DNA of 64,000 nt from Robiginitalea aestuariiviva. GTDB taxonomy: Bacteria; Bacteroidota; Bacteroidia; Flavobacteriales; Flavobacteriaceae. Position numbers and translations under genes: made by a program. The number at the start of each line of letters is the position of its first letter. The stretch's first letter is position 1. The notes under the pieces are model-generated. The model saw only the letters and a program-made list of their open reading frames with translations, had not been told where the DNA came from and made no database searches. The stretch lies in contig NZ_JARPUQ010000003.1 of assembly GCF_029537735.1 (NCBI RefSeq), forward strand, positions 121,015 to 185,014. Reading direction: 5' to 3'. Of the stretch, positions 2,257 to 59,677 are shown piece by piece.

Positions 2257-2278
2257 TGCCGGGGTACCGTTCAATAAT

Positions 2279-4017: not shown

Positions 4018-4045
4018 GGTAATGGCTTAATCGTGAACCATGGGT

Positions 4046-12761: not shown

Positions 12762-12835
12762 CGGGATGTAGCGCAGTCCGGTAGCGTACTTCGTTCGGGA
12801 CGAAGGGGTCGCAGGTTCAAATCCTGTCATCCCGA
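12762..12835 (+). tRNA. tRNA-Pro (anticodon CGG)
   Basis: 74 nt cloverleaf. The acceptor arm CGGGATG pairs with CATCCCG, discriminator A. The D-arm is GCGC/GCGT, the anticodon stem CTTCG/CGAAG with loop TTCGGGA (anticodon CGG), and the T-arm GCAGG-TTCAAAT-CCTGT. CCA is not encoded. Its last 12 bases form most of the left att core of the integrated element, so the tRNA is intact after insertion. Confidence 0.95.
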
Positions 12836-12836
12836 C
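12824..12836 (+). repeat. attL core (tRNA-Pro 3' end)
   Basis: The 13-mer CTGTCATCCCGAC, covering the tRNA 3' end, is repeated exactly at 53243-53255 in the same orientation, 40.4 kb away. An integrase gene starts 237 bp inside. This is the standard pattern of site-specific integration into a tRNA gene. Confidence 0.88.
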
Positions 12837-13073: not shown

Positions 13074-14339
13074 ATGGGCACTTCAAGAACTTTCAGTATT
13101 CATTTTTGGCTAAATCTGTCTAAACGAAATGGCGATTTGGCACCCATTTATGCGCGTATTACTGTGGACGGTAGACGCTCAGAAATCAGTTTAAAACGCC
13201 TCACTTCGGTTACTTATTGGGATACCAAATCCCGAAAAACTACCGGAAAATCACCAGAGAGTAGGTCAATTAACAGCTATTTGGACCAAGTACAAGTACA
13301 GCTGTACGAATGCTATAATCAGTTACGTATTGAGGGTAAGTTAGTTACGGCAAAGTTGATTAAATCTAGGTTCGTCGGGCAAGAGGATTTGGACAAAACC
13401 CTACTCCAATTAATCACCTATCATAATGATCGGATGGCTGAAACCTTAAGACCAGGGACTTTAAAAAACTATTTTTCAACTGAGCGTTATATCAAACGGT
13501 TCTTAGTAGAAAAGCGTAAGACCAGAGATGAGTACTTGAAGCATTTGGACTACAGTTTCATTATTGACTTTGAGCATTATTTGAGAAAGGCATCTCCCTT
13601 ACAAAAGGGAAGATCACTCAATCAAAATGGAATCATGAAACATATGGAGCGATTAAAGAAAATGATGAATTTGGCAGTAGATCTGGAATGGTTAGAGCGA
13701 AATCCCTTTTCCAGATTCAAACTCAGATTTAAAAAATTCAAAAAGGAATTCTTGACCCGTCAAGAGTTGGCTGCTTTTGAAGAGATTGAATTTAAAGATT
13801 CCGGTTTGCAAACGGCCAAAGATGTATTTGTATTCTGTTGCTATACCGGGTTATCCTACTGTGATATTCGACAATTGTCGTATTCCAATCTTGTTCGAGG
13901 TATTGATGGTGAAAAGTGGATTCATACCTCCAGGACCAAAAATAATGTACCGGTTAGAGTCCCTCTGCTGCGCCAGGCAAGATCGATAATTGATCGCTAT
14001 ATGGACAAACCAAAGAAATTCGAAGGGCAACTATTGCCGGTGATATCAAATCAACGTATTAATGATTTCTTGGTTGAAATCTGTGATTCACTTGGCATCT
14101 ATAAACACATAACATTTCATTCAGCCCGGCATACCTTCGCGACAACGGTGACACTTTCAAACGGTGTTCCCATTGAAAGCGTTTCTAAGATGTTAGGACA
14201 CACCAAAATCACTACGACTCAAGTCTATGCCCGTGTACTCGATGAAAAAATAAGCGGGGATATGCGCGATTTACAGTCCAAACTTGAAGGTAATGTTCCA
14301 TATTCTAAGCAAACCTTAAAAGCAGAAGGAGGCAAATAA
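13074..14339 (+). CDS. Tyrosine recombinase (ICE integrase, IntDOT-like)
   Basis: Catalyses integration and excision at tRNA-Pro. 421 residues: an arm-binding N-terminus (1-100), a SAM-like core-binding domain (about 105-215) and a catalytic domain (about 225-405). Catalytic residues visible are His349 and Arg352 (FHSARHTF), His376 (LGHTKIT) and nucleophile Tyr385 (TQVYARV). The first catalytic arginine is replaced by Ser261 in YTGLSYCDIRQL, a known trait of IntDOT-type enzymes. It is transcribed inward from attL. The leader carries two copies of TTGACTTTCG (13011-13037). Confidence 0.93.
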   Translation: MGTSRTFSIHFWLNLSKRNGDLAPIYARITVDGRRSEISLKRLTSVTYWDTKSRKTTGKSPESRSINSYLDQVQVQLYECYNQLRIEGKLVTAKLIKSRFVGQEDLDKTLLQLITYHNDRMAETLRPGTLKNYFSTERYIKRFLVEKRKTRDEYLKHLDYSFIIDFEHYLRKASPLQKGRSLNQNGIMKHMERLKKMMNLAVDLEWLERNPFSRFKLRFKKFKKEFLTRQELAAFEEIEFKDSGLQTAKDVFVFCCYTGLSYCDIRQLSYSNLVRGIDGEKWIHTSRTKNNVPVRVPLLRQARSIIDRYMDKPKKFEGQLLPVISNQRINDFLVEICDSLGIYKHITFHSARHTFATTVTLSNGVPIESVSKMLGHTKITTTQVYARVLDEKISGDMRDLQSKLEGNVPYSKQTLKAEGGK

Positions 14340-15207: not shown

Positions 15208-15663
15208 AATCTGGCAATTTTTGGGCAAATAAAAAGGACTCATCCGCACTTAGGGGGTTAAGTCCTTCATTCTTAAGTGACCACTTCAGGATTCTATCCT
15301 TGGCTGTAACTTTCTTATATTCAGTTAAATAATCGATAATTATTATAAAAATATATCGATTTGCAACCTTTCATCTTGGTGTTTCTTCTTCATCAAAATT
15401 GGCTAAATGAAACTAGTTCAATTTTGTGCCATTTATATATAGAAAGATCATATCGACATTGTTGATTAGTACCAATCAAAGATATTACGGTTTAGAGTTT
15501 ATTTTTTCCAATTCAATCTAACTGAAGTATAGTGATTGAAAAAATCTTTGTGAAAGTCATTTTGGGACCTAATGGTATCGACAATTAAAATCCTACTAAA
15601 TAAATTATATATTACTACAATAATGACAGAAAAAACACTAATAATATGGCATCACTTCACATA
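15208..15663. other. AT-rich 456-bp region upstream of the lanthipeptide precursor
   Basis: No coding sequence seen. It should hold the promoter of the precursor gene. It contains an ATCGAT inverted repeat (15332-15337 with 15355-15360) and a near-match to the -7 box (AATCTTTG near 15545). There is no other structure I can support. Confidence 0.4.
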
Positions 15664-15683
15664 ATGTAGTATATTACCTACAT
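15664..15683 (+). promoter_or_regulatory. Inverted repeat just before lanA (candidate operator)
   Basis: ATGTAG and CTACAT (15664-15669 and 15678-15683) form a 6-bp inverted repeat around TATATTAC, ending 12 bp before the start codon. A related, inverted copy (TATTACTACAATAAT) lies near 15609-15623. The placement suggests a repressor site or leader structure controlling the precursor gene. Confidence 0.35.
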
Positions 15684-15695
15684 AAAACATTTATC

Positions 15696-15947
15696 ATGAA
15701 GAATAAAAAATTTAAGCTTTCGTTGAACAAGGAAATTATTTCAACATTTGAGGCAAGACGAGTGGTAGGAGGGGAAACGGATCAAATTTGTGCGTCAAAC
15801 TTTACTCCTGCATGTCCTCCAGATGAGACTGAGCCGGTAGGAATTTGTCAACCACCTGGTGGTGAGACGGACCCTCAGTCAATAGATGGATGCACTTGTA
15901 ATGAGGATATGACAATGACATGCTGTATATATTCATGTTCTTGTTAG
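15696..15947 (+). CDS. lanA: Class I lanthipeptide precursor peptide
   Basis: 83 residues. The leader (1-26) has the Bacteroidota class I motif KLSLNKEIIS and ends at a double glycine (VVGG, residues 23-26), the usual cut site for a C39 peptidase transporter. The 57-residue core has 9 Cys and 11 Ser/Thr, crowded at the C-terminus (CTCNEDMTMTCCIYSCSC). That is what dehydration by LanB and cyclisation by LanC would need. GGETD occurs twice, at the leader junction and at core positions about 54-58. It lies beside LanC, LanB and transporter genes. The final structure and activity cannot be read from sequence. Confidence 0.88.
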   Translation: MKNKKFKLSLNKEIISTFEARRVVGGETDQICASNFTPACPPDETEPVGICQPPGGETDPQSIDGCTCNEDMTMTCCIYSCSC

Positions 15948-15980
15948 AGAAATTGTTTGATAAAGTTTCTTTTATTTGAA

Positions 15981-16014
15981 AAGGTTATTCCAATTATGGA
16001 ATAGCCTTTTTTAT
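15981..16014. terminator. Bidirectional terminator between lanA and the S41 peptidase gene
   Basis: 12-bp stem (15981-15992 with 15997-16008, one G-T wobble), 4-base loop, then TTTTTT on the + strand and a T-rich run on the - strand (AAAA before the stem). It ends the precursor transcript. The TAA stop of the convergent S41 gene (15994-15996) lies in the loop. Confidence 0.85.
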
Positions 16015-18246
16015 TAAAGCAATTGCTTGAATAAGGCTTAAGTCTTGATTCCTTCTTATTGATTCTGGGGTATTTTCTAGTTCTATATCAATTTTAATTC
16101 CAACCCCTTGGGTAGCCTGACCATCTGGATAAAATACACCTATACCGCTAATTCCTGTCTCTAGGGCGCCCGGTAACGGGATTCGAGAAACATTGCCATC
16201 GGCTCCTGCAGTCTGACTACCAACAACAATTGTCTGAGAATTAGCCTGGAAAGCCATTGTAGTAAATTCCCCGAGACTTTGTGTATTCTCATCAACAATG
16301 ACTATAACCATTCCCCTGAATCTTTCGTTGTCCGACTGTGGGATTTCAGATACATCTTGAAATTCGAATTCACCAGGGTTATAAATATTAAACTTAGTAA
16401 ACTTCGCAAATGCCTTACCTGGTATTGAGAATTGAGGCCAAAGTTTTGATGCAGATCCTGACGGATACCTACGCGCATCAAGTATGACTCCTTTGACAAG
16501 TTGCCCCAATTCAATTATTTTTTCGATTTCAGAGTCTACCACTCTATGCAATTCAACATATAATATTGATTCCTCAATTAATTTGAAACTTGATGAACCC
16601 TCAGAGTTGTACCATTTGAAGTCAATTTTGTTCCTAGGAAATAGGGGTAAATCAATTTCAATAGATTTTACGCCGCGAAGAATGTCCAACTCCAAAAATT
16701 CTTGCGAAGATCTAAGAAGATCTCGCGAAATGTCTCGCAACTTACTGGATAGGTTTGAAGAAGGATAATAGGGCATCATACTATCAACATGAATCTCTAT
16801 TTCCTTTCCATTAATATGCGTGATTTGATCGCCTAGTTGAATATCGAGGTCTAGCATAAGCTCCGGATTATAGATAGCTTTAACAAGCCATTTATCTTTA
16901 ACAAAGGCTAATTTGAAAGGAGCATAATTTTCACCTCTAAAATTGGAAATGCGAGAAGATCTTAACTGGGCATGGGAATCATTTAACTCATTAATCAGAG
17001 CTAAATAATTCAAGTCGCCCTCCAAACCATCTTCAACTTCAATAAATTTTGGTATATACTCCACTAAAACATCGTCCCATTCTTTGGGAATCAATTCTTT
17101 ATATGGAAAAAAATATTCTACAATATTCCAAAGCCTGAATAACCCTAAAAGGCGGAAACCATCGTCTGTTGACTCCACGTTGGGGTACCACTCTTCGTTT
17201 AGAAAACTCGGATTGCCAGCGCCTGGATTGACTTGGACGTAATACTGAAGGCCTTGACATTTTATTTGACTGACTTTAAGTAAAGAATTTATTAAGCTTG
17301 GTTGCGGATCATAATCCTTTATCCAACCTATCTCTGAATAAAGACTTTCTAAGCCTAGTTCAGAGGTTTTTGTACTGTCTATACCTTCAATTGTTCCAAT
17401 TTGCTCAATCCACTGAGTTAATATCTCATCACGCTCAGATGCATTCCTCGTCATAATGATTTTAGGTAGAATTTCTAATAATTCGAAATCCCAATTAACG
17501 ACACCGCCACATACTAGAGGATGGTTATACTTGAGGTATCCCCAAACTTTTGCTAAGAAGGATAAGTTTTTTATTTGATCTGGAGATAGTTCCCTTAGAC
17601 TGAGAGTTGAGCCTAGCTTGGTGCTTTGATAGCTCTTAGATTGGATTTTAAAAGTTGGAACTTCACTTATTGGAAATTTCAACGGAATTCCTTCTAATTG
17701 CAAATTAATGTCATCTAACCAGAGTATTCCCTTACCTGCGAGGTAACCTCCTATATAAAGATATTTTGTGTTTTTTGGAACTTCTACCCCAATAGAATAC
17801 TCATTCCAATCACTAGTACCTTTTACCGCATATTCTTGCATATTCCTATAAATAGGAATTTGACCATCATTAGATTCTGTCCACAATAATAGACCTCCAT
17901 AACCACTATTTACCTTTTGAGTCTTAATAAAGCCGGAAAGCTTAACGGTATTGCCTTTCCCTTCTATTGGGATTTTTAAATATATACTACCAATCGAGTC
18001 AGTTAAGTTCTCGTTTGATGCTATTCTAACCGAATTTTTCCCTCTAAACGAAACACTAGAATCTAGAGTTACCACGTAACTGCCCCAAGTTGACCAATCC
18101 CGCAATGGTGAATTTTGGGTTTCATTGGATTCAAAACCATATACTTCTTTCGATTCAGGTTGGGCCTGACACGAGCCAGATAAACTTACAAGGAGTATAA
18201 GCGATGTTATTAATTTTAATACCGATAAATTCGGATAATACTTCAT
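15994..18246 (-). CDS. S41-family (C-terminal processing-like) peptidase lipoprotein
   Basis: 750 residues. The N-terminal lipoprotein signal ends at SLSGSC, so it is exported and anchored. Residues about 35-190 look like a carbohydrate-binding/jelly-roll domain (WNEYSIGVEVP, LWLDDINLQLEG). The C-terminal S41 peptidase domain (about 530-745) has VILDARRYPSG, the catalytic-serine block DENTQSLGEFTTMAF and GSQTAGADGNVSRIPLPG. A PDZ-like segment precedes it (LGDQITHINGKEIE). It is encoded between the precursor and lanC but on the opposite strand. It could trim the exported peptide or protect the producer (inference). Confidence 0.85.
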   Translation of the reverse strand: MKYYPNLSVLKLITSLILLVSLSGSCQAQPESKEVYGFESNETQNSPLRDWSTWGSYVVTLDSSVSFRGKNSVRIASNENLTDSIGSIYLKIPIEGKGNTVKLSGFIKTQKVNSGYGGLLLWTESNDGQIPIYRNMQEYAVKGTSDWNEYSIGVEVPKNTKYLYIGGYLAGKGILWLDDINLQLEGIPLKFPISEVPTFKIQSKSYQSTKLGSTLSLRELSPDQIKNLSFLAKVWGYLKYNHPLVCGGVVNWDFELLEILPKIIMTRNASERDEILTQWIEQIGTIEGIDSTKTSELGLESLYSEIGWIKDYDPQPSLINSLLKVSQIKCQGLQYYVQVNPGAGNPSFLNEEWYPNVESTDDGFRLLGLFRLWNIVEYFFPYKELIPKEWDDVLVEYIPKFIEVEDGLEGDLNYLALINELNDSHAQLRSSRISNFRGENYAPFKLAFVKDKWLVKAIYNPELMLDLDIQLGDQITHINGKEIEIHVDSMMPYYPSSNLSSKLRDISRDLLRSSQEFLELDILRGVKSIEIDLPLFPRNKIDFKWYNSEGSSSFKLIEESILYVELHRVVDSEIEKIIELGQLVKGVILDARRYPSGSASKLWPQFSIPGKAFAKFTKFNIYNPGEFEFQDVSEIPQSDNERFRGMVIVIVDENTQSLGEFTTMAFQANSQTIVVGSQTAGADGNVSRIPLPGALETGISGIGVFYPDGQATQGVGIKIDIELENTPESIRRNQDLSLIQAIALIKKAIP

Positions 18247-18363
18247 ATGAAATACGGTTAATACGAAATAATAGTAATATAATTCACTAGATTAATAAAG
18301 TAAATATGTGTTAAATTGCTTCAATTCGGATATCAGCAATCCCTTAATTTTTTTATTAGCCCT

Positions 18364-19593
18364 ATGAATAACAAGACGCCAAATGTAACGCAAGAGTACT
18401 GCATCAAAAAGTTAGATGAAATTGCACAAAGCTTAAATTATGAGCTTACTAAAGAATCTAATATTGGAGTGCTAACCGGTTTAGGTGGTATTGCACTCTT
18501 CTATTTCTATTATTCTAGGCTTTCAAAAGATCAACTCTCATATGAAAATCAAGCAATTTTTTCATTGGAAAGGGCTAATGAATTGATTAATCAGGGATAT
18601 CAATTTCCAACATTTTGTAAAGGCATTGCAGGGTATGCTTGGGTGCTCAATCACCTTAATGAGAATCATTTTATTCAGGTGGATTGTGACGAAGTACTTC
18701 CAACTTTTGAAGGTTTTTTAGAACTGACCATGTTTAGGGAAATGAGCAGAAACAAGTTTGACTATCTACATGGAGGCGTTGGTTATGCTCTATATTTTTT
18801 GGAAAGATACAATTCAACAAATTCTAACAAACTTAAGGAGAAGTACAAAGGCATTTTAGAGCGGTTTCTCGTACAACTTCAAACTAACGCAATTAAAAAT
18901 CAAGGAACCTACTCCTGGAAAATGGAAATGAGTCATCCCAAACGAGTAGTAATTAATCTTGGATTGTCCCATGGAATGGCCAGTATCATTGGGCTCTTAT
19001 CTAGAATGCTAACCTATGACTTGTTGGATTCCAATGCTGTTGATTTATTGAGAGGTGCTAGTGATTATTTTCTTAATGAAATGAATTCAAGTTCTGAAGG
19101 ATATCGATTTCCTAAGCATGTTGAATTAAATGGAGAGAAATTATATCATGGAAGACTTGCATGGTGTTACAGTGATTTAGGTATAGCTGTCCAATTGATG
19201 TGCGCATCTAAAGTGCTGAAGGATAAAAATATAGAAACAATAGCAATAGAGGCCTTTGAAAATACGCTTAGGATCACCAATGAAATGGAGCATCAAGTGG
19301 TAGATGCCCCAATTTGTCATGGCTCCTTTGGAATAGCACAGATTTATCGAAGAGCATATAAACTAACAAATAGCATAAAATTTAGAGATGCGGCAACTCA
19401 CTGGATTCGAGACGGCCTGTCCCGATCAAATCATGGAAATGAATTCGCGGGATTTCGATTCAGAAATCCACTCGCTAAAAAATGGGAGATTAGAACTAAT
19501 CTGCTTGAAGGGATCTCAGGTATAGGCTTAGTTCTAATTGATAGTCTGTCTTCGGAAGAAAATAATTGGGATAAGTGTTTAATGATAAGTTAA
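18364..19593 (+). CDS. lanC: Lanthionine synthetase C (LanC cyclase)
   Basis: Zinc enzyme that adds cysteine thiols to dehydrated Ser/Thr to form (methyl)lanthionine rings. About 409 residues, normal for LanC. It has the repeated alpha-barrel glycine motifs (GLGGIALFYFYY, GLSHGMASI, GISGIGLVL) and the zinc ligands Cys268 (AWCYSDLG) and Cys318-His319 (CHGSFGIAQIYRR). ATG at 18364 is preferred over one at 18316, which adds an unmatched 16-residue tail. lanB follows after 4 bp, so the two are co-translated. Confidence 0.93.
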   Translation: MNNKTPNVTQEYCIKKLDEIAQSLNYELTKESNIGVLTGLGGIALFYFYYSRLSKDQLSYENQAIFSLERANELINQGYQFPTFCKGIAGYAWVLNHLNENHFIQVDCDEVLPTFEGFLELTMFREMSRNKFDYLHGGVGYALYFLERYNSTNSNKLKEKYKGILERFLVQLQTNAIKNQGTYSWKMEMSHPKRVVINLGLSHGMASIIGLLSRMLTYDLLDSNAVDLLRGASDYFLNEMNSSSEGYRFPKHVELNGEKLYHGRLAWCYSDLGIAVQLMCASKVLKDKNIETIAIEAFENTLRITNEMEHQVVDAPICHGSFGIAQIYRRAYKLTNSIKFRDAATHWIRDGLSRSNHGNEFAGFRFRNPLAKKWEIRTNLLEGISGIGLVLIDSLSSEENNWDKCLMIS

Positions 19594-19597
19594 GCCT

Positions 19598-21838
19598 ATG
19601 AATTACCAAATGCCCTACACGGCTTTTCCAAAATTCGTATTGAGAACACCACTTTTTTCGGTAGACCAATATTTTGAACTCGCCAATAAACCTGCCCTAT
19701 CGGATGAAGACTACAAGGAAATATGCTCTGATCCGCTATTTATGGAAGCTTTATATCTGGCCTCACCACCTCTTGTAAGTGAAGTACAAAAATGGCTGTC
19801 CGGAGATCTAACTGGGTTAAAGCGGATTAACAAATTGAAAATTTCAATATTCAAATATTACTCTAGAATTTGTTCTCGATGCACACCCTTTGGATTGTTC
19901 GCCGGTTCTTCGTTAGGCCAGATCAACTCGAAAACTAAAGTTCAATTAGCCCAACCGGGTAATCATAAGCGCCATACACGTTTGGATATGAATTACTTAG
20001 TCGCGCTTGCAATGGATCTTTCAAGAAATGATCTTATAAAGCCCCAGATTCTTTACTATTCCAATTCCAGCATTTATGAAATTGGCGAAAAGCTTAGATA
20101 CGTTGAATATCAATATAGAAGAGGGAAACGATATCATCAATCCGTTTCTATTGACAATAATAGGTTCTTGACTAAACTATTGAAAAAATCTCAAAGGGGT
20201 CTGAATATAACTGAACTTGAGATAGTTCTTAAAGAAATGGGGGTTGATCGAGATGACGCCAAGGAATATATTCATGATTTAATTAATAATAAAGTTCTCG
20301 TAAGTGAAATCGAACCGTCTGTAGTTGGGCCCGAATTTATGGATCAAATTCTCGCTTCATTAGAAAGGATGCATGGTGTAGAACAGATAAAATCTGATTT
20401 GAAACAAATAGATGTTTTACTTAATGAATTGGACCAAGGAGTAGGCAACGAATTACAACTTTATCAGAATATAATTGATCTGCTGAAAAACTTGGGAACA
20501 GAATTCAATCCCAAATACGTATTTCAGACCGATACATCCTTAAAGTGTATCGAAGCCACATTAGCTTCATCCTTGTTAGATGTTTTTGAGGAAGGCCTAA
20601 GGATTATAAACAAGCTATCAGTTTCAAATGGGAACAGCAATTTAAAGGATTTCAGAAAAAGGTTTCGTGAAAGATTTGAAGAACGAGAAATAGAATTGTC
20701 CAAATGTCTTGACCCGGAATTGGGTATTTTCTACGGCGATGGCTCTGCTAACAAAGACTTAAATCAATTCGTTAAGGGGATACATATTGATCATTCACTT
20801 AGAAATTCACAAACCCAAGCCATTCAATGGAATAATATTCATGGCTTATTACTTAACAAAATCATCGATTTTGCCAAGAATAACCAAGACTCAATTAATT
20901 TATCCCATAACGATATAAAGGCGCTTCCTGGAATATGGGATGACTTGCCGGATACGTTTTCGTGTGTAGTCCGATTAGTAAATGTTGGGGATAAGGAAAA
21001 ATACGTTTTATCAGGCTGGCTTGGTTCAAGTGCTGGGAATCTCCTTGGTCGTTTTTGTCATGTTAGTGAAGAGATTCATGAGTTTGTAAATGAAATAATA
21101 GAATACGAAGAAAAAAGAAATGCCGACAGTATCGTAGCAGAAATTAATCACTTGCCGGAATCAAGGGTTGGCAATGTACTAATGCGACCGAATATCAGAA
21201 ATTTTGAAATCCCATATCTGGCTAAATCATTGAAGCCCTTGGATATGCAAATACCAATTTCGGATTTAACAGTATCTGCCAAATATTCTGAGCCAATAAA
21301 ATTGAAATCTAAAAAGTACAAAAGAGAAGTAAAGCCAAGGCTAACGAATGCCCATAATTTTAGAAATAAATCGCTCCCGATATATCATTTCCTGTGTGAC
21401 ATGCAAAATGTCGGACTAAGAAGAGGACTTTATTTGGATTTTGGTCCCTTACGTAAACAAATTGAATTTACTCCAAGAATCGAATACAAAAACATAATTC
21501 TGCATTGTGCCACATGGAATTTAAAAAAATCACATGTTGAAATGATGCTGCGTTCATACGATGATGACGATAAATTAATTAATGCGACCTCAAATTTTCA
21601 AAGAAAAACCGGAATACCAGAAAAGTTCTATTTGGCTCAAGGTGATAATGAACTTTTAGTTTTTTTAGCTTCTTTAGACTCAATTAGGATGTTCCTTTCG
21701 GAAGTTAAAAACAAAGAGGACTTTCTCCTTAAAGAATATTTAAGTCCATCGGATTCTATAAAAGGGGCAAATGGAAAGCGATATTCCAATGAAATCATCT
21801 TGTCTTTTTACAAGGACCAGATAAAATCAGTCTCATGA
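19598..21838 (+). CDS. lanB: Lantibiotic dehydratase, glutamylation subunit (LanB N-terminal part)
   Basis: Uses glutamyl-tRNA to glutamylate Ser/Thr in the precursor before elimination. 746 residues. It has the N-terminal LanB domain, including the conserved ISIFKYYSRICSRCTPFGLF block near residue 90. It ends before the elimination domain, which is encoded by the next gene. Full-length LanB proteins are about 1000 residues, so this is a split LanB, an arrangement also known from the pinensin cluster of Chitinophaga. Confidence 0.92.
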   Translation: MNYQMPYTAFPKFVLRTPLFSVDQYFELANKPALSDEDYKEICSDPLFMEALYLASPPLVSEVQKWLSGDLTGLKRINKLKISIFKYYSRICSRCTPFGLFAGSSLGQINSKTKVQLAQPGNHKRHTRLDMNYLVALAMDLSRNDLIKPQILYYSNSSIYEIGEKLRYVEYQYRRGKRYHQSVSIDNNRFLTKLLKKSQRGLNITELEIVLKEMGVDRDDAKEYIHDLINNKVLVSEIEPSVVGPEFMDQILASLERMHGVEQIKSDLKQIDVLLNELDQGVGNELQLYQNIIDLLKNLGTEFNPKYVFQTDTSLKCIEATLASSLLDVFEEGLRIINKLSVSNGNSNLKDFRKRFRERFEEREIELSKCLDPELGIFYGDGSANKDLNQFVKGIHIDHSLRNSQTQAIQWNNIHGLLLNKIIDFAKNNQDSINLSHNDIKALPGIWDDLPDTFSCVVRLVNVGDKEKYVLSGWLGSSAGNLLGRFCHVSEEIHEFVNEIIEYEEKRNADSIVAEINHLPESRVGNVLMRPNIRNFEIPYLAKSLKPLDMQIPISDLTVSAKYSEPIKLKSKKYKREVKPRLTNAHNFRNKSLPIYHFLCDMQNVGLRRGLYLDFGPLRKQIEFTPRIEYKNIILHCATWNLKKSHVEMMLRSYDDDDKLINATSNFQRKTGIPEKFYLAQGDNELLVFLASLDSIRMFLSEVKNKEDFLLKEYLSPSDSIKGANGKRYSNEIILSFYKDQIKSVS

Positions 21839-21850
21839 AAATTAGTAAGT

Positions 21851-22750
21851 ATGAATGGAGTAGACAAATACGTGAACAATCAACGCACGTTTATCCCTGG
21901 ACAATCATGGTTATATTATAAGATCTATACTGGAACAAAAACCGCTGAAAAAGTTTTAGTTGAAGAATTGATTCCTGAATCTGAAAAGTATATCGGTGAT
22001 AATCTAATCGATAATTGGTTCTTTATTAGGTATTCAGACAGGGGGTTCCATATACGACTTCGATTTAGACTAATTAACCCTTCAGGGATAGGGCAGATCA
22101 TGTACGAGTTATCCAAACGACTCGGTCCTTTTGTAGATCAAGATATCATTTGGGATGTTGAAATCGGTACGTATAAAAGAGAGCTTGAAAGATACGGAGA
22201 AGAGCTTATGGAATTTTCTGAATGTTTATTCCACTATGATAGCAAAATGGTGGGAGAAATATTGAAGTGTATCTATCTTGATTATTCAGATGGACTACGT
22301 TGGTTGGTAGGCCTTAAAAGTATCGATACATTAATGGATACGATTGGACTAAACCAGAGTCAAAAGTGCGAACTTATATCAGGAATGAATCAATCGTTTC
22401 TAACCGAATTTGGCGATAATCGGAGATTAAGAAAGCAACTTGGGAACAAGTTCAGAGTTGAAAGGGATAGACTCACCGAATTTATTAATCTTGAGAGCTC
22501 TTCCGACCAAAAAACACACGCTGTTATAAAAGCAATTAAGACCAGGAATGAATCCATTGGAAGACTTTTAGAGACTAGTCGGAGTTTTTCCTTTAATGAA
22601 ATGTCACAGAATCGTTTGTTTTCCCTGTTAAGGGCATATATACACATGACCATGAATAGACTCTTTATCTCGGAAAACAGAAAATATGAATTGGTCTGTT
22701 ATGACTTACTTACACGTCATTATAAGTCGGAGATAGCTAGAATGAAATAA
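21851..22750 (+). CDS. LanB elimination subunit (SpaB C-terminal / thiopeptide-type domain)
   Basis: 299 residues of the SpaB_C family. Recognisable blocks are SWLYYKIYTG near 20 and NWFFIRYSDRGFHIRLRFRL near 55, then DIIWDVEIGTYKRELERYG near 98. The family removes glutamate from glutamylated Ser/Thr to give dehydroalanine or dehydrobutyrine. It starts 12 bp after the glutamylation subunit and would work with it as the second half of one enzyme. Confidence 0.9.
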   Translation: MNGVDKYVNNQRTFIPGQSWLYYKIYTGTKTAEKVLVEELIPESEKYIGDNLIDNWFFIRYSDRGFHIRLRFRLINPSGIGQIMYELSKRLGPFVDQDIIWDVEIGTYKRELERYGEELMEFSECLFHYDSKMVGEILKCIYLDYSDGLRWLVGLKSIDTLMDTIGLNQSQKCELISGMNQSFLTEFGDNRRLRKQLGNKFRVERDRLTEFINLESSSDQKTHAVIKAIKTRNESIGRLLETSRSFSFNEMSQNRLFSLLRAYIHMTMNRLFISENRKYELVCYDLLTRHYKSEIARMK

Positions 22751-22812
22751 TTCAACTTCGGTAAAAATTCAAATAGTTCTAACGCTATTTGGGTATTTAA
22801 ACCTGGAACAAT

Positions 22813-25002
22813 TTGAGAAGTAAATTCCCTACATATATTCAGCCAAACTCAAAAGATTGTGGCCCAGCTTGTTTACAGATTATATTGAACTATTATGGGC
22901 ATCAAATGTCCTTTCCAAACATTAGGGACTTATGTGAAACAACCAGGGAGGGAACTAGCTTATTTAATTTAAGTGAAGCTGCCGAGCAACTGGGTTTTAA
23001 AACAATATGTGCACGAATTAGTTTTGAGCAACTCAAAAATGCAAATCTTCCATGTATAGTCCATTGGAAGGATCATCATTTCGTAGTTGTATACAAAATA
23101 AGGAGGGAAAAAGTCTATGTTTCCGATCCCGCGTTTGGTTTATTGAAATATGACATTCAGGATTTTCTAAACGGTTGGATAGGCCATTCTAAAATACCTT
23201 CAAGCCCAGGTATCGTTTTACTTCTTGAAGAAACTCCAAATCTTAAAAATCTGGTGTGGAATGAAAAGCCTAAAAATTCGATTCGGTTTATCTACCAATA
23301 CTTATTCAAGTATAAGAATTTATTAGCCCAACTTGTTCTAGGGCTACTAGTAGGAAGTATACTTCAACTTATATTTCCATTTTTAACCCAGAGCATTGTC
23401 GACATTGGAATCCAAAACCGAGATGTCAATTTTATTTATCTCATTCTTGGCGCACAACTCATGCTTTTTATTGGTCGTACAAGTGTAGATATTTTTAGAG
23501 GTTGGATTTTGTTACATCTCAGCACACGCGTTAACATTTCTCTTGTTTCTGACTTTTTTTTAAAGCTTATGAGCTTGCCGATTGCATATTTTGACACCAA
23601 AATGACTGGAGATATAATGCAAAGGATCAATGATCATAGAAGGATAGAAAGACTCTTAACCGGATCATCCCTTAGTATCCTTTTCTCACTATTTAACCTT
23701 ATAATTTTTGGGTTCGTTCTCTTTTACTATAGTCCGCAGATCTTTGGTGTTTATATTTTTGGAAGTCTTATTTATGTTGTTTGGATCATCTATTTCTTAA
23801 AGAGAAGGAAAGAGCTCGATTATAAAAGATTCCAAGAACTAAGCCGCGAAAGAAGTACGGTAATTGAGTTGATAAATGGAATGCAAGAAATAAAGCTGCA
23901 TAATGCTGAAAGGTTCAAACGCTGGAATTGGGAGTTCATCCAGATTAAGCTCTTTAAAGTTTCAATGAAAAATTTAAGACTTGAGCAAACTCAAGGTGTT
24001 GGTTCATCGGTAATCAATGAGTTAAAGAATATTATTATCACCTTCCTCTCTGCCGTTCTAGTAATTGAAGGTAAGATTACCTTAGGAATGATGCTCTCAA
24101 TACAGTATATAATTGGACAGCTCAATGCTCCAATTGGACAACTCGTCAGCTTTATTAGAACCTACCAAGATGCTAAAATTAGTATTGAAAGACTCGCCGA
24201 AGTTCATGAGCGCGAAGATGAAGAGTCTAATCGTAAACTTCTCCATAAATCAATTCGGCCAAATCAAGATATAGTTTTCGAGAATGTATCCTTTAATTAC
24301 CTAGGTAGTGAAAAGAATGTTTTAACCAACATCAATCTAGTAATACCCGCTAATAAAACCACAGCAATTGTGGGGTCAAGCGGTAGTGGCAAATCCACCT
24401 TGGTTAAACTAATGTTGCAGTATTATGAGCCGAATAATGGCAACATTAGATACGGAAATCATTTCCTAAATCAGATTTCACCGAGAAAATGGCGTGAGCA
24501 TTGCGGAACTGTAATGCAAGAAGGTTTTTTATTCAATGACACAATTGCAGCAAATATTGCCTTGGGCGCTGAATATATCGATCGAAGAAGACTTAAAGAA
24601 GCGGCGATACTCGCTAACATCGATGAATTTATTAATTCGCTACCACAAGGCTTTAATACACTTATCGGTAATGAGGGAATCGGTATTAGCACTGGCCAAA
24701 AACAGAGGTTATTTCTGGCGAGGGCTGCATATAAAAGCCCATTTATATTATTCTTTGATGAGGCAACATCGTCGCTAGATGCACGAAATGAATTTATTAT
24801 TATGAAAAACTTGAAAGAATTCTTCAAAAATAAAACTGCCGTTATTATTGCTCATCGTTTAAGTACTGTAAAGAATGCCGATCAAATTATAGTACTTGAG
24901 AATGGTGCAATATTGGAGAAGGGTACACACCACGAATTAGTTCAATTGAAAGGCGCATATTTCAATTTGGTTAAAAACCAATTGGATCTTCAAAGTATAT
25001 AG
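22813..25002 (+). CDS. lanT: C39 peptidase-containing ABC transporter (LanT)
   Basis: Exports the modified peptide and cuts its leader after Gly-Gly. 729 residues. The C39 peptidase (1-140) has catalytic Cys16 in SKDCGPACL, His in DHHFVVVYK and Asp in VSDPAFG. The membrane domain (about 165-440) has several hydrophobic helices. The ATPase has Walker A VGSSGSGKST, signature ISTGQKQR, Walker B ILFFDEATSSLD and the H-loop IIAHRLST. Start is TTG: the frame is closed upstream by TAA at 22798 and no ATG precedes the peptidase motif. Directly followed by the HlyD gene. Confidence 0.93.
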   Translation: MRSKFPTYIQPNSKDCGPACLQIILNYYGHQMSFPNIRDLCETTREGTSLFNLSEAAEQLGFKTICARISFEQLKNANLPCIVHWKDHHFVVVYKIRREKVYVSDPAFGLLKYDIQDFLNGWIGHSKIPSSPGIVLLLEETPNLKNLVWNEKPKNSIRFIYQYLFKYKNLLAQLVLGLLVGSILQLIFPFLTQSIVDIGIQNRDVNFIYLILGAQLMLFIGRTSVDIFRGWILLHLSTRVNISLVSDFFLKLMSLPIAYFDTKMTGDIMQRINDHRRIERLLTGSSLSILFSLFNLIIFGFVLFYYSPQIFGVYIFGSLIYVVWIIYFLKRRKELDYKRFQELSRERSTVIELINGMQEIKLHNAERFKRWNWEFIQIKLFKVSMKNLRLEQTQGVGSSVINELKNIIITFLSAVLVIEGKITLGMMLSIQYIIGQLNAPIGQLVSFIRTYQDAKISIERLAEVHEREDEESNRKLLHKSIRPNQDIVFENVSFNYLGSEKNVLTNINLVIPANKTTAIVGSSGSGKSTLVKLMLQYYEPNNGNIRYGNHFLNQISPRKWREHCGTVMQEGFLFNDTIAANIALGAEYIDRRRLKEAAILANIDEFINSLPQGFNTLIGNEGIGISTGQKQRLFLARAAYKSPFILFFDEATSSLDARNEFIIMKNLKEFFKNKTAVIIAHRLSTVKNADQIIVLENGAILEKGTHHELVQLKGAYFNLVKNQLDLQSI

Positions 25003-25011
25003 TTGTCAAAA

Positions 25012-26298
25012 ATGGAACAAGAAGAGCCACTACGTTCCCAAGAGGTCCAGGAGGTGCTATCAAAGCCTCCTAAATGGATTATCCGTTATGGGATTACGAT
25101 CGTCTTTTTCATAACTGCACTAATCCTTTTACTTTCATCTTTAATTAAATATCCAGATATAGTCGAAGCAGAGGTTTTGGTTACAACAAGTTCACCGGCT
25201 GAGCATATTATTGCTCGATCTAGTGGAGCATTGGATACCATTTATTTCGACAATGGATCGCAGGTTAGTAAACAAGATGTTATTGGTGTTATTCGGAATA
25301 CGGCTCGCACCAATGATGTTTACCAACTCAAAGGTTATATCGATACGTTTGATGTAAGTAAAGATGTTCTTGAATTTCCCGTCGAGAGCTTCAACCAATA
25401 TTCCTTAGGAGACGTAGGGCCGATGTATACACTATTTGCAAATGATATTTTAGAGTATAGGCTATTGGAAAAGCTAGGAACATATAAAAATGAAATTCAA
25501 GCAAATAGACAGTCCTTAAGCGAATTAACTCAACAACTAAATTCACAAATCTTTCAAAGACGACTTTTAGAACAAGAGTATAACCTATTTCTGAATGATT
25601 TTTCTCGGTATGAAACCTTATTCTCTAAGGGTGTAATTTCTCAACAAGAAATGGAAGGTAAGAAGATTGAAAAATTAAATTTTGAGAATAGGATATCCAC
25701 CATGTCGATTTCAATTTCTAAGCTTCGAGAGACTCTTTCATCCTCTAATTATATGTTAAGGTCAACTGAATTAAATCGTACTGAGGAAAGCCTCAGAATT
25801 CTGGGGTCTCTGGCCCAAAACTTAAACGCCCTGAAGAAGGCAATATTGGATTGGGAATATTCCTTCGTACTCAAGGCATCCATAGAAGGAAAAGTCAGCT
25901 TTAAGGAGTTCTGGGGGCCAAACCAATTTGTCAGTGCAGGTTTGGAAGTTTTCACCGTGTTACCAAATCGAAGTGAAGGTTTGGTTGGTAGGCTTATAAT
26001 TCCTTCTCAAAATAGTGGTAAGGTTAAAATAGGTCAAGATGTTAACATCAAACTGGACAACTATCCCTATCAAGAGTTTGGGTTTTTGCAAGGAAAGGTT
26101 GTAAATAAATCATTTTCACCCGATTCCAACAATAACTACTTCGTATTTATTTCTATACCTGATGGAACTCTTACTACATATGGTGAACGACTACCCTTTG
26201 ACCAAGAATTATTAGGAATTGCGGAAATTGTAACTAATGATTTATCAGTTGTAGAAAGGATTTTTAACAAGCTAAGAAAAGTTTTACAATACAACTAA
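25012..26298 (+). CDS. HlyD-family periplasmic adaptor
   Basis: About 428 residues. One N-terminal membrane helix (IIRYGITIVFFITALILLL, about 25-45), then a beta-barrel/lipoyl part (PAEHIIARSSGALDTIYFDNG), a long coiled-coil segment (about 150-270) and a second lipoyl half (SFVLKASIEGKVSFKEF). It links the inner-membrane C39 ABC transporter to the outer membrane in Gram-negative bacteriocin exporters. An in-frame TTG at 25003 directly follows the lanT stop; ATG at 25012 is the more usual start. No outer-membrane TolC gene is in the cluster. Confidence 0.9.
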   Translation: MEQEEPLRSQEVQEVLSKPPKWIIRYGITIVFFITALILLLSSLIKYPDIVEAEVLVTTSSPAEHIIARSSGALDTIYFDNGSQVSKQDVIGVIRNTARTNDVYQLKGYIDTFDVSKDVLEFPVESFNQYSLGDVGPMYTLFANDILEYRLLEKLGTYKNEIQANRQSLSELTQQLNSQIFQRRLLEQEYNLFLNDFSRYETLFSKGVISQQEMEGKKIEKLNFENRISTMSISISKLRETLSSSNYMLRSTELNRTEESLRILGSLAQNLNALKKAILDWEYSFVLKASIEGKVSFKEFWGPNQFVSAGLEVFTVLPNRSEGLVGRLIIPSQNSGKVKIGQDVNIKLDNYPYQEFGFLQGKVVNKSFSPDSNNNYFVFISIPDGTLTTYGERLPFDQELLGIAEIVTNDLSVVERIFNKLRKVLQYN

Positions 26299-27575: not shown

Positions 27576-28278
27576 TTCTATATCTACCCCTTAATTAGCT
27601 ACTGTTCAAGGTAAACGAAATAGGATGATTTCTTCTCTTTTCTTCAGATGTCTGAATAATCCCCAAGTAAGCCTTGGTTTAAGGCAAAAATGAGTAGTGA
27701 TTAAATGTTTCACGTAATCTCTGGTGATATTTTTATTGATTTCTCTTAAATTCAATTTAGTAGTATCAAACTGATCCTTTCATTAGTTTGTTAATTTCCA
27801 ATTTCTTATCAGCACAATTTTTTACTGAACTACTTAAATCCTTATTCGCAATTTTCAGTTGTTGATTGAATTTTAAGTATTTATTTGGTATTAACTACCA
27901 GTTAAATTCAGTCTAGTTTCGATCTGTCTATTCGCTTAAGCTGAACTGACTTTGCAGTTTCTGGGCCTATCTCACTTAGGACTTTCCGCACCTTTCCCGG
28001 TTCTTTTTTGATCGCAAAACACCAACACTTCCCAGTTGGCCGGACTGCATAAAGCCGGACCTCATAAAAGGTCCTTTATATAAGTCCTTTTGCCAATGCG
28101 AAGTATTGCAATTGTGTCAGCATCAAAAAAGAAAACAGCCAAGGGCATCATCAAAGACTATTCAAAAATGTATCCCATGAAACCTTTAAAGCGACGAAAC
28201 CAATCTTCAAAAATTAAGGCTGAAAGTTCGCTGAATCCCTCAACATGTAAATCAAATGTTTCACTTAAATCCCGTGTT
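27576..28278. other. 703-bp region between the IS and ssb
   Basis: AT-rich, with no supported gene. From 28090 the frame is open into ssb without a stop, giving a basic 63-residue extension, but the SSB family begins at 28279. A 6-bp hairpin (28057-28062 with 28069-28074) and a repeated GCCGGAC (28039 and 28054) lie where the ssb promoter is expected. Confidence 0.45.
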
Positions 28279-28617
28279 ATGAACACCATCAGAAATCAAG
28301 TCCAATTAATTGGCAACGTAGGACAGAATCCTACCGTCACTACCCTGGATAGCGGCAAGAAAGTAGCCCGCTTTTCCTTGGCCACCAATGAGTATTACAA
28401 AAATGCACAAGGCGCAAAAGAAACTCAGACCCAGTGGCATCAACTGGTTGCCTGGGGCAAGGTCGCCGAAATCATCGAGTCCTATGTGACCCAAGGCAAA
28501 GAGCTCGCGGTAAGTGGCAAACTCATCCACCGTCAGTACGACACCTCCGAGGGTGAACGCCGATATGTCACCGAAGTCGAGGTCAATGAACTCCTGTTAC
28601 TGGGTTCCAAACCCTGA
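28279..28617 (+). CDS. ssb: Single-stranded DNA-binding protein
   Basis: 112 residues forming one OB fold: MNTIRNQVQLIGNVGQNP at the start, then VARFSLATNEYY, TQWHQLVAWGKVAEII and GKLIHRQYD. It lacks the acidic C-terminal tail of chromosomal SSB, as is common for ICE copies. It would protect the transferred strand in conjugation. Start at 28279 matches the family; an upstream in-frame ATG at 28090 would add 63 residues. Confidence 0.92.
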   Translation: MNTIRNQVQLIGNVGQNPTVTTLDSGKKVARFSLATNEYYKNAQGAKETQTQWHQLVAWGKVAEIIESYVTQGKELAVSGKLIHRQYDTSEGERRYVTEVEVNELLLLGSKP

Positions 28618-30954: not shown

Positions 30955-32526
30955 ATGCCTATCCCTTTGCTTTTTTCGAGCCTACTGATCTATACGCTAC
31001 TATGGCTATTAAGCCGGCGAGCCGGACGAAAAGCCGATGCGATTCGAATCCTCCTTTTTGTATTCAGTTTGGTTCTTGGATTTATTTGGTGGAAGGAAGC
31101 CTGGCATCTTTATCTACTGATTTGGGTGTGCCCGATATTGGGTATTACCGTCATGTTATTGACCTATATAGAATCCACTGCACTAGAAGCTGCCGCTGAC
31201 GTTTTCACGGTAAACCTGGCACATCGCAAAGGGGTTTTTCGATTACAGAATATGCGGCGGGGTGTTTCCGTTATTGGGGCAGCCGGTAGTGGAAAAACTC
31301 AAAGTGTGCTCGCCCAAATTCTTATACATGCGGCCAAGCAAGGACTCTCTGGGGTAATTCATGACTATAAGGATTTTGAGCTTACCGAGCTGGCTTATCC
31401 CTTACTGGATACCAAAAGGGCGCAGTTTTACTGTATTTCCTTTGATCCCGTATATCACCGGGTTAATCCCATTGCGCCCCGTTATTTGCCTTCCGCGGAA
31501 GCCATCAATGAAATCGTACATGTGCTAATTAGCAACCTTCTGGAACAAAAGGAAGATGGGCCTTCTGGAACGGGAAAGTTTTTCACCGACGCGGTAGAGG
31601 GCCTACTGGCCGGAATGATCTGGCGGCTTCGCACTGATTATCCCAGGTACTGTACCCTCCCACATCTGATTGCCCTCTACCAGCAGTTACCCCAGGATAG
31701 CCTGGTAGCTTTTTTAAACGCCAGTGCCATATCCCAGGGCCTGTCCAGCGCTTTTTTGCAGGGGATAGCTTCGGAGCGGCAGACGGCTGGTGTGATGAGC
31801 ACCCTGGCCAATGCCTTAAAAAAGATATCCACCTTTAAGATCTTCTATGTGCTTTCTGAAGATGAAGTACCCCTCGGGGTGAATTCACAGGCTATGCCCA
31901 CCTGGATAAGTCTGGTGAACAATCCGCAGTACGAATCCGCATATGCCCCAGTATTAGCTACGGTGATGCACGCCATAACCAAACAAATGGCAGTTCGAGG
32001 GGCAAATCCATCCTTTATTCTTATGGAGGAAGCCCCGACGATTCGACTTTATAACATGCACCGAATCCCAGCTACCTTACGCAGTTATGATATCGCTACC
32101 ATCTATGTGATGCAGGATAAAATCCAGAACGATCTGATGTACGGGGAAAAGGCAGGTAAGGCCATTTTAAGCAACCTGTCTTACCAGTTCTTCGGCAAGG
32201 TAAATGATCCAGATACAGCCAAGTACTACGAGCAGTTTTTTGAGATCATTAAAAAACCCACCCGCAGCGTGAACCGCAGCCATACCATCAATTTTGACAC
32301 CCGGGTAACCACAGGGGAACGCGAGGTGTCGAAAGTACGAGCGGATGTGTTTTTCCGGCTCAAGCCAGGGGAGTTTATTGCCTTCGCCGATGGGCAGGAG
32401 GCACGGATTTGGTTCGAAAAGCCACAACTGATGCGGGGATTGCCTAAGCCCCCAAAAGCCGGGGATTTGGCGGCCCATTACTCCCAAATCTATGAAGAGG
32501 CCCGATCTATCTTTCAGGCGGACTAG
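30955..32526 (+). CDS. Type IV coupling protein (VirD4/TraG-like)
   Basis: 523 residues. Two or three N-terminal membrane helices (1-90), Walker A VIGAAGSGKTQS near residue 108 and Walker B FILMEEAPTIRL near 360. Brings the relaxosome to the secretion channel. Together with bfmA and the relaxase it forms a rightward mob operon that converges on the leftward tra operon. Confidence 0.9.
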   Translation: MPIPLLFSSLLIYTLLWLLSRRAGRKADAIRILLFVFSLVLGFIWWKEAWHLYLLIWVCPILGITVMLLTYIESTALEAAADVFTVNLAHRKGVFRLQNMRRGVSVIGAAGSGKTQSVLAQILIHAAKQGLSGVIHDYKDFELTELAYPLLDTKRAQFYCISFDPVYHRVNPIAPRYLPSAEAINEIVHVLISNLLEQKEDGPSGTGKFFTDAVEGLLAGMIWRLRTDYPRYCTLPHLIALYQQLPQDSLVAFLNASAISQGLSSAFLQGIASERQTAGVMSTLANALKKISTFKIFYVLSEDEVPLGVNSQAMPTWISLVNNPQYESAYAPVLATVMHAITKQMAVRGANPSFILMEEAPTIRLYNMHRIPATLRSYDIATIYVMQDKIQNDLMYGEKAGKAILSNLSYQFFGKVNDPDTAKYYEQFFEIIKKPTRSVNRSHTINFDTRVTTGEREVSKVRADVFFRLKPGEFIAFADGQEARIWFEKPQLMRGLPKPPKAGDLAAHYSQIYEEARSIFQAD

Positions 32527-42730: not shown

Positions 42731-43537
42731 TTATTGGTCGTCCAATTCCATTTTAGACTGCAAGGTGATGGCCAATTGATCTAAAAACTTGGTTCGACTT
42801 TTCTTTCTAAAGCGTATCTCGGAGTAGCTGCGGTAGAAGTCTCCAAGGTCACAACCAAATTCGCATTGAAGGTATTCAGCAATCTTTTTCAGAGAGGCAT
42901 TCCCATGGTTGAACACCCCACAGCTGTGCAAAGCATAAACGAGTTCAACCAGATCGACTTTTTGACCGGTCCATCTCAATGTAGAAATGCGCGTTTGCTT
43001 TTGATTGTCTAAGGATTGATTTTCCAGGTAGTCCTTGAATAGTGAGAAGGCTTTGAATTTTGCCAGAAGGGTATCATGACTGGTTGAGAAGCCAGGATCC
43101 AGAAAGTAAAGGGAATAGGTTGCCTGATTACGGGTTGCCTCTCTAGTAAAATAGAGCGGATCCATATAGGATTGCTCTTGCAGGATATAGGAAATGAATT
43201 CAGAATTATGGCGATAGAATGCATTGACCCGATCCATATGGGCCCGCAAGAACTTGTTTTGTGCTTTGGTATCCATTACCGGCACATCTTTTAAAAAGTC
43301 CTTTATTAATAGGAAATAAATGAAATGCGAAAAGGGAACGGATTTAATGGTCTTGAAGAAATTAATTTCGCAACAAGGGTCTAATTCATCATGACTAGTG
43401 AGCCAGCAGTTGAGTTTATCGAGTTGTGATTTTGATAGCTGCAAGGCACAATCAATACTGGGAAGATCAATTTGATAGTCTCCGAGGTAATCTTTGATTT
43501 CGTTTAAATAGTTCTTGTTCAATAATTGCACCTCCAT
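42731..43537 (-). CDS. rteC: RteC-family regulator
   Basis: 268 residues. The C-terminal block (TLRWTGQKVDLVELVYALHS, then IRFRKKSRTKFLDQLAITLQ) is the RteC signature. In CTnDOT, RteC activates excision genes; here it lies next to the HTH/replication operon and probably controls ICE excision or transfer. No rteA/rteB two-component genes accompany it. Confidence 0.92.
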   Translation of the reverse strand: MEVQLLNKNYLNEIKDYLGDYQIDLPSIDCALQLSKSQLDKLNCWLTSHDELDPCCEINFFKTIKSVPFSHFIYFLLIKDFLKDVPVMDTKAQNKFLRAHMDRVNAFYRHNSEFISYILQEQSYMDPLYFTREATRNQATYSLYFLDPGFSTSHDTLLAKFKAFSLFKDYLENQSLDNQKQTRISTLRWTGQKVDLVELVYALHSCGVFNHGNASLKKIAEYLQCEFGCDLGDFYRSYSEIRFRKKSRTKFLDQLAITLQSKMELDDQ

Positions 43538-48314: not shown

Positions 48315-48318
48315 TCTT

Positions 48319-50283: not shown

Positions 50284-50328
50284 CATGTTAAATATACAAC
50301 TAATTACTACTCAAAAATTCTATGATAA

Positions 50329-50739: not shown

Positions 50740-50863
50740 AAGTCAATGAGATTAAGGTGGTAGTAATAACGCCTAATAGAATACAATTAAATGATTGCCT
50801 ATATATGGGGTATAGTGCATTATGAACTGTATACATATGTTATCGGTAATTAGACCAATTTAG

Positions 50864-53242: not shown

Positions 53243-53255
53243 CTGTCATCCCGAC
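53243..53255 (+). repeat. attR core
   Basis: CTGTCATCCCGAC, identical to 12824-12836 over the tRNA-Pro 3' end. Marks the right limit of the 40.4-kb element. Confidence 0.88.
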
Positions 53256-59057: not shown

Positions 59058-59060
59058 GGC

Positions 59061-59660: not shown

Positions 59661-59677
59661 GGCCGTGGGTTTACAGT

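What the first reader, a model, noticed from the sequence alone, without database searches (positions are those of the whole stretch)
15664..26298. Class I lanthipeptide cluster with a split LanB carried on a conjugative element
A precursor with the Bacteroidota KLSLNKE...GG leader is followed by LanC (with Zn ligands), LanB split into glutamylation and elimination proteins, a C39-ABC transporter and an HlyD adaptor. All lie within an ICE, so the ability to make this peptide could move by conjugation. Known family facts: split LanB occurs in the pinensin cluster. The core sequence here resembles nothing I know.
Basis: partly seen in the sequence, partly recalled or inferred. Interest (0 to 1): 0.85.

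Follow-up and report, generated by a model that had tools for sequence, protein, structure and literature searches.

The report
Mobile lanthipeptide cluster with extra protease
A Flavobacteriaceae genome carries, inside a conjugative DNA element, a complete set of genes for making and exporting a ring-containing peptide, of a kind already known from this phylum but with an additional protease gene set into it.

Summary
Window 15696-26298 encodes a class I lanthipeptide cluster: GG-leader precursor, LanC with conserved active-site residues, LanB split into glutamylation and elimination proteins, C39-ABC exporter and HlyD adaptor, all in intact frames. It is cargo of a 40.4-kb ICE (12825-53255) in tRNA-Pro, with att repeats, relaxase, coupling protein, TraG/M/N and RteC; the empty site is clear in 4 of 9 congeners. 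The architecture is not new: split LanB with GG/C39 leaders is described for Bacteroidetes (PMC7268733), and 21 of 43 LanB genes in a phylum sample are split. And the 'unknown' core is not unique: its C-terminal motif recurs in three other Flavobacteriaceae precursors. ICE carriage looks unusual (TraG within 100 kb of lanC in 0 of 49 relatives), but nisin is a precedent. New member of a known kind; product and activity untested.

The parts
12824..12836 (.). attL: last 13 bases of tRNA-Pro(CGG) (12762-12836)
   Evidence: empty site in congeners
13074..14339 (+). tyrosine integrase of the ICE
   Evidence: PF00589, PF13102, PF17293
15696..15947 (+). lanA precursor, 83 aa; GG at 25-26 and a second GG at 55-56; conserved C-terminal GCTCNEDMTMTCCIYSCSC
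15978..16011 (.). 15-bp perfect hairpin with U/A runs, overlapping the S41 stop codon; possible bidirectional terminator between convergent lanA and S41
   Evidence: -18.3 kcal/mol, z -6.3; not listed by the consensus terminator scan
15994..18246 (-). S41-family serine peptidase, 750 aa, with N-terminal signal- or lipoprotein-like segment
   Evidence: PF03572 E 6e-13; PDB fold matches 4ghn and CPAF; Ser657 and His425 invariant in 10
18364..19593 (+). lanC cyclase (ATG 18364; the frame opens at TTG 18316)
   Evidence: PF05147; Cys268, Cys318, His319, Asp133, His203 invariant in 5
19598..21838 (+). lanB1: tRNA-Glu-dependent glutamylation half of split LanB
   Evidence: PF04738; NisB 4wd9 E 2e-17 and 9g04 E 1.6e-42
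21851..22750 (+). lanB2: glutamate-elimination half of split LanB
   Evidence: PF14028, TIGR03891; Arg69, Arg71, Arg114, His265 invariant in 8
22813..25002 (+). C39 peptidase-ABC exporter
   Evidence: PF03412, PF00664, PF00005
25003..26298 (+). HlyD-type adaptor
   Evidence: PF13437
26407..27524 (+). IS3-type insertion element (two frames) between cargo and ICE backbone
28090..28617 (+). ICE backbone: SSB
   Evidence: PF00436
29916..30944 (+). MobB-family relaxase
   Evidence: NF041495 over cut-off
30955..32526 (+). type IV coupling protein
   Evidence: PF10412, PF12696, PF02534
32540..33322 (-). TraN-like (DUF4138; the TraN name is recalled)
   Evidence: PF13595
33319..34233 (-). TraM
   Evidence: PF12508
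36255..38660 (-). TraG conjugation ATPase
   Evidence: PF19044; relatives of up to 64% identity are common in the family
42731..43537 (-). RteC regulator
   Evidence: PF09357
53243..53255 (.). attR

Best explanation
This is an ICE-borne class I lanthipeptide cluster of the Bacteroidota GG/C39 type. LanB1 glutamylates Ser/Thr of the precursor with Glu-tRNA, LanB2 eliminates glutamate to give Dha/Dhb, and LanC closes Lan/MeLan rings, most plausibly in the conserved Cys-rich C-terminus. The C39 domain removes the leader after Gly26 during export through the ABC-HlyD machine. The S41 peptidase, sorted by its signal-like N-terminus to the cell envelope, then trims the exported peptide or (less likely) destroys it for self-protection. 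The element can excise from tRNA-Pro and move by conjugation. Shown: genes, intact frames, conserved catalytic-type residues, element boundaries, empty sites, recurrence of the S41 gene and of the core motif. Inferred: every chemical step, S41's role, excision and transfer, and biological activity.
For: Families and intact frames. LanC residues invariant in 5. LanB2 residues invariant in 8. PDB relatives (NisB, 9g04, 5ehk). Relatives: 396 LanC relatives in one genome-contig scan, of which the best 80 were returned; in 58 of 80 LanB1 lies within 700 bp downstream of lanC, and 59 of 59 with both halves have a stop between them. Shared core motif. S41 in the cluster in 4 of 80 (L058, L059, L102, L129) plus L040 from another search; 23 S41 homologues in 47 host genomes give 0.09 expected in the 49 loci, P about 3e-6. 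ICE ends; empty attB in G396, G398, G399, G403, weaker in G397. In print: PMC7268733 (passages) describes LxLxKx5L leaders, many ending in GG, C39 proteases, and split LanB in a number of class I clusters; PMC9993889 (passages) reports dehydrated, ringed products from two Bacteroidota class I systems in E. coli.
Against: No product, expression or transfer data. The leader model NF038153 is below cut-off. The 30-aa segment between the two GGs is absent from L058 and L095, so the true product is uncertain. S41 was not seen in the stretches held of 76 of 80 relatives, L095 included, which shares the core motif; so it is not required in general. Promoter-like patterns were not in significant excess over shuffles. 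No outer-membrane channel and no recognised immunity gene was found among the cluster genes scanned. No second genome carrying the cluster was found in the genus (LanB1 in 0 of 9 congeners).
Confidence: 0.88

Rival explanations
1. The S41 gene is an unrelated passenger of the island; the cluster is an ordinary lanA-lanC-lanB-exporter set.
For: S41 is on the opposite strand in the window, a strong hairpin lies between it and lanA, and it was not seen in the held stretches of 76 of 80 relatives. A congener without a LanB1 match carries a 38% homologue (G397).
Against: The order lanA-S41-lanC recurs in L058, L102 and L129, and in L102 and L129 S41 is co-directional with gaps of 28 and 2 bp to lanC. 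S41 also lies between lanB2 and hlyD in L059 and just before lanA in L040. Chance expectation is 0.09 against 4 seen.
Confidence: 0.25
2. The cluster makes a dehydrated or otherwise modified RiPP without lanthionine rings (thiopeptide-like use of the separate LanB2).
For: LanB2 matches TIGR03891 'thiopeptide-type'. Of 20 LanB1 relatives fetched with up to 20 kb each, only 5 show a match to this LanC, so many relatives work without a near LanC of this type.
Against: Here LanC is present with its conserved residues, and LanB2 keeps an Arg/His set invariant among 8 relatives; that this set marks elimination and is lost in cycloaddition enzymes is recalled.
Confidence: 0.04
3. The cluster is decaying and silent.
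For: An IS3-type element abuts it. In the relative L058, LanB1 and LanB2 survive only as fragments beside long open frames for lanA, S41 and lanC. No significant excess of promoter-like patterns.
Against: All seven frames here are open at full length, with conserved active-site-type residues in LanC, LanB2 and S41.
Confidence: 0.1

Closest known systems
Bacteroidetes class I lanthipeptides with LxLxKx5L...GG leaders and C39 proteases (PMC7268733, passages read)
   Same: Leader type, GG end, C39 protease, LanB/LanC, split LanB in a number of clusters
   Different: The passages seen mention no S41 peptidase; the word 'mobile' does not occur in the main text
Pinensin cluster of Chitinophaga pinensis (PMC10112250, passages read)
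   Same: Split dehydratase genes pinB1/pinB2 with pinA, pinC and pinT
   Different: That cluster has genes suggested for perception and import (Cpin5321-5324), for which no equivalent was recognised here; the core peptides were not compared
Nisin on conjugative transposon Tn5276 (PMC12506125, passages read)
   Same: Class I lanthipeptide cluster as cargo of a conjugative element
   Different: Lactococcus; NisB is one chain; leader and protease differ (recalled)
L102 Chryseobacterium cucumeris and L129 Myroides MAG clusters (this work)
   Same: Order lanA-S41-lanC-lanB1-lanB2
   Different: Different cores. No Tra or relaxase match in the stretches held; L102 has a short (36-aa) integrase match 9 kb downstream near tRNA genes

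Membership tests
Class I lanthipeptide cluster | LanB with glutamylation and elimination domains | tested here: met
   PF04738 and PF14028 over cut-off on two proteins; residues of LanB2 invariant in 8. Activity not testable.
Class I lanthipeptide cluster | LanC cyclase with Cys-Cys-His zinc site | tested here: met
   PF05147; C268, C318, H319 invariant in 5; ligand roles recalled from NisC
Class I lanthipeptide cluster | Precursor with class I leader and Ser/Thr/Cys core | tested here: inconclusive
   Leader matches NF038153 at 18.6 bits, cut-off 22; leader positions shared with L058, L095, L224
Class I lanthipeptide cluster | Dehydrated, thioether-ringed product | not testable with these tools
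   needs expression and mass spectrometry
Integrative and conjugative element of Bacteroidota | Integrase, relaxase, coupling protein, Tra genes | tested here: met
   TrbC-like pilin 38931-39218 below cut-off; several other Tra-region proteins without Pfam match
Integrative and conjugative element of Bacteroidota | Defined ends with direct repeats and an empty site in relatives | tested here: met
   4 of 9 congeners clear, one weaker, four without an adjacent right-flank match
Integrative and conjugative element of Bacteroidota | Excision and transfer | not testable with these tools
   needs PCR for the joined circle and mating
Pinensin family | Pinensin-like core peptide | not tested
   pinensin sequence not fetched or compared
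Peptidase family S41 | S41 domain with nucleophile Ser | tested here: met
   PF03572 over cut-off; Ser657 invariant in 10, nucleophile role by analogy; folds like 4ghn and CPAF

The most novel reading that the evidence does not exclude
A two-protease branch of Bacteroidota class I lanthipeptides exists in which an envelope S41 serine peptidase, encoded between lanA and lanC, finishes or disarms the peptide after C39 cleavage. In this member the S41 step would act on the extra 30-residue segment between two GG sites, freeing a 27-residue ring module that is conserved in other genera, and the whole pathway travels on an ICE.
Probability: 0.3. Interest if true: 0.6.

Novelty: new member of a known kind. 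Interest (0 to 1): 0.42.

Why it matters
It gives a complete, compact and mobile pathway for a peptide whose ring motif recurs in other Flavobacteriaceae, so the product can be predicted and tested. It also points to a candidate dedicated maturation or immunity protease (S41) for clusters whose later steps are unknown. Carriage on an ICE together with candidate anti-phage genes offers a concrete case of offence and defence moving together, as reported for the nisin element (PMC12715929, abstract and passages read).

Tried and rejected
Uniqueness of the core: rejected. The pattern ACNTGYTGYNNNTAYWSNTGYWSNTGY hit 3 of 397 family genomes; besides the window's own, one match lies in a frame full of stops and one is a Cys-codon repeat. 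The three-sequence leader/core profile hit 15 of 397 genomes at E up to 0.01; many of its hits cover only the leader.

Carriage of relatives on ICEs: TraG (PF19044) was sought in the 47 genomes holding 49 LanC loci (50 of the 80 loci were given, L114 was not held); 29 of 47 genomes had a match, 28 over cut-off. Short contigs can hide cases. The TraG family also rings in 7 of 14 control genomes, so it is not specific to this ICE type. Against my reading that carriage is unusual: 5 of 80 loci have an integrase match (L085, L097, L102, L103, L122) and L083 has MobB/T4CP matches (25-30%) just past its exporter; these were not resolved. In L122 and L097 (64% and 48% identity) the cluster seems, from the int orientation, to lie outside that element (my reading).

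Plasmid search with LanB1: 49 of 72,556 records; none above 35.3% identity among the 30 listed. Promoter patterns: no significant excess. Paper searches for an S41-lanthipeptide link: one search was swamped by DOI strings holding 's41' and is useless; the phrase 'S41 family peptidase' with lanthipeptide gave one review of eukaryotic RiPPs (listing only); the main text of PMC8960859 holds none of 'S41 family', 'PF03572', 'peptidase_S41'. Other wordings were not searched. Robiginitalea plus lanthipeptide: 0 papers; that genus name was my unproved guess and is not used. The S41 background in 20 other relatives was replaced by that in the same host genomes.
Full report
What is there. Window 15696-26298 holds a precursor, an S41 peptidase (opposite strand), LanC, two LanB parts, a C39-ABC exporter and an HlyD adaptor, all in open frames of full length. 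Only one PF05147 gene was found in the genome, this one.

The enzymes look functional. LanC keeps Cys268, Cys318, His319, Asp133 and His203 in all 5 aligned sequences (roles recalled from NisC). LanB1 aligns over most of its length with NisB (4wd9, residues 42-728, E 2e-17) and with 9g04 (12-740, E 1.6e-42). LanB2 aligns with the C-terminal part of 9g04 (9-273) and of the lantibiotic dehydratase 5ehk (16-139) and keeps Arg69, Arg71, Arg114 and His265 in all 8 aligned sequences (correspondence to the NisB elimination residues is recalled). This favours elimination over the cycloaddition of thiopeptide relatives.

The precursor. 83 aa; leader MKNKKFKLSLNKEIISTFEARRVVGG; 11 Ser/Thr and 9 Cys follow Gly26 (hand count). 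The leader model NF038153 gives 18.6 bits against a cut-off of 22. A second GG ends at residue 56, and both GGs are followed by ETD. L058 and L095 lack the 30-residue segment between the two GGs; L224 has a different long segment.

How common is this architecture. In 395 genomes of the phylum, 33 have a LanB1 homologue; of 43 genes listed, the window's own included, 21 have open frames of 732-778 aa (taken as split) and 22 of 910-1097 aa (taken as fused) (hand count). Among 9 congeners none has one. A LanC profile found 396 relatives in named genomes, of which 80 loci were returned. LanB1 lies within 700 bp downstream of lanC in 58 of 80; 60 of 80 have a full LanB1 (E below 1e-100), 59 of these also LanB2, and all 59 have a stop codon between the two. 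These 80 were chosen by likeness to this LanC, so the last figure is not independent. C39-ABC (E below 1e-100) was within the held stretch in 27 of 80, HlyD (E below 1e-30) in 25, both in 23. PMC7268733 (passages) describes this leader type with GG and C39 for Bacteroidetes class I precursors, and split LanB in a number of class I clusters; PMC9993889 (passages) reports dehydrated and ringed products from Chryseobacterium and Runella systems. So the kind is known.

The S41 peptidase. PF03572, E 6e-13. AlphaFold2 model from 10 sequences, mean pLDDT 81.8; best PDB matches 4ghn (a putative Bacteroides uniformis protease) and CPAF. Ser657 and His425 are invariant in all 10; their role as nucleophile and base is by analogy to CPAF and recalled. 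The N-terminus looks like a signal or lipoprotein segment (read from sequence). Homologues (E below 1e-50) lie in the held stretch of 4 of 80 loci: L058, L059, L102, L129; L040 from another search makes a fifth. In L058, L102 and L129 the order is lanA-S41-lanC; in L102 and L129 S41 runs with lanC at gaps of 28 and 2 bp; in L059 it lies between lanB2 and hlyD, and in L040 before lanA. The 47 host genomes (about 232 Mb, summed by hand) hold 23 such homologues; the 49 loci searched sum to 0.948 Mb, so 0.09 are expected and 4 seen, P about 3e-6. The P-value treats loci as independent, which is only roughly true, and E-values of the two searches are not on one scale. S41 was not seen in 76 of 80, L095 among them, so it marks a subset; some stretches are short. 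My searches for an S41-lanthipeptide link in print found nothing relevant (one search was spoiled by DOI strings). lanA and S41 are convergent here and share a strong hairpin with U/A runs (15978-16011, z -6.3), which the consensus terminator scan did not list.

The element. GC falls from 0.54-0.63 in the adjoining flanks to 0.31-0.52 between 13 and 54 kb; the far left (0-6 kb) is 0.475-0.507. A 13-bp repeat, the 3' end of tRNA-Pro, stands at 12824-12836 and 53243-53255. In congeners G396, G398, G399 and G403 the tRNA with some upstream sequence (91-97% identity) runs straight into the right flank (75-80%), the two matches overlapping by 12 bases. G397 shows an 11-base overlap with only the tRNA itself matching on the left; since the window's own genome has a second tRNA with a like downstream sequence (C3:120573-120737), G397 may show a paralogue. 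The other four congeners gave no adjacent right-flank match. Between the ends lie integrase, SSB, RadC-like protein, MobB relaxase, T4CP, a TraN-like protein, TraM, TraG and RteC. The backbone is common: TraG relatives at E up to 1e-100 in 77 of 299 family genomes (the window's own genome is among the 77). The left cargo is poorer in GC (0.33-0.40) than the Tra region (0.465-0.515), which suggests that the cluster was added to the backbone (inference). Family identity: window and G025 share a family, and G025 contig C1 has the same length, 1,143,181, as the Flavobacterium record behind L084, so the host is in Flavobacteriaceae; its genus is not named here.

Is ICE carriage usual. Of 49 relatives' loci, none has TraG within 100 kb on the same contig (limits and contrary signs in Tried and rejected). 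Carriage here therefore looks unusual for the group, though nisin clusters on Tn5276 and a related one on an ICE are already known (PMC12506125, passages). One paper search for lanthipeptide, ICE and Bacteroidetes together gave only that paper.

Mechanism. Most likely: glutamylation (LanB1), elimination (LanB2), ring closure (LanC), C39 cleavage after Gly26 during export, then an S41 step outside the inner membrane. S41 as maturation protease 0.45, immunity 0.25, passenger 0.25 (my estimates). Target and activity are unknown; pinensin's antifungal action is the only activity from this phylum met in the passages that I read (PMC10112250; PMC7268733).

Verdict. Observation confirmed, interpretation supported, rank lowered from 0.85 because the architecture is known and widespread. 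The parts that add something are the S41-containing subset, the shared ring motif and the ICE location.

Noticed in passing
window 47700-52195 (+): Right-hand cargo of the ICE: resolvase, a 654-aa protein matching the PADLOC candidate PDC-S56 (E 1.3e-220) and a Shedu SduA protein (E 3e-26). Lanthipeptide and candidate phage defence travel on one element.
   Followed up: partly
window 14647-15249 (-): 200-aa protein matching the first part of SIR2 defence models (E 1.6e-6; models of 345 and 414 aa), possibly a remnant.
   Followed up: no
window 1447-2373 (-): Protein with a Hint (intein-like) domain in the chromosomal left flank, beside large proteins without Pfam match at 2788-6049.
   Followed up: no
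window 57391-61692 (-): NosD and nitrous oxide reductase propeller matches in the right flank.
   Followed up: no
L058 11228-12185: In this relative LanB1 and LanB2 survive only as fragments while lanA, S41 and lanC keep long open frames.
   Followed up: partly
L224 11373-11630: Orphan precursor with the same C-terminal motif; no LanB or LanC matches in the 26.5 kb fetched.
   Followed up: partly
L122 7458-8714; L097 5036-6226: Integrases 64% and 48% identical to the ICE integrase lie next to lanthipeptide clusters that seem to be outside the element.
   Followed up: partly
L083 19412-21197: Relaxase- and coupling-protein-like matches (25-30%) within about 1.5-3 kb of a lanthipeptide exporter in Maribacter flavus; TraG of that contig is about 254 kb away.
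   Followed up: no
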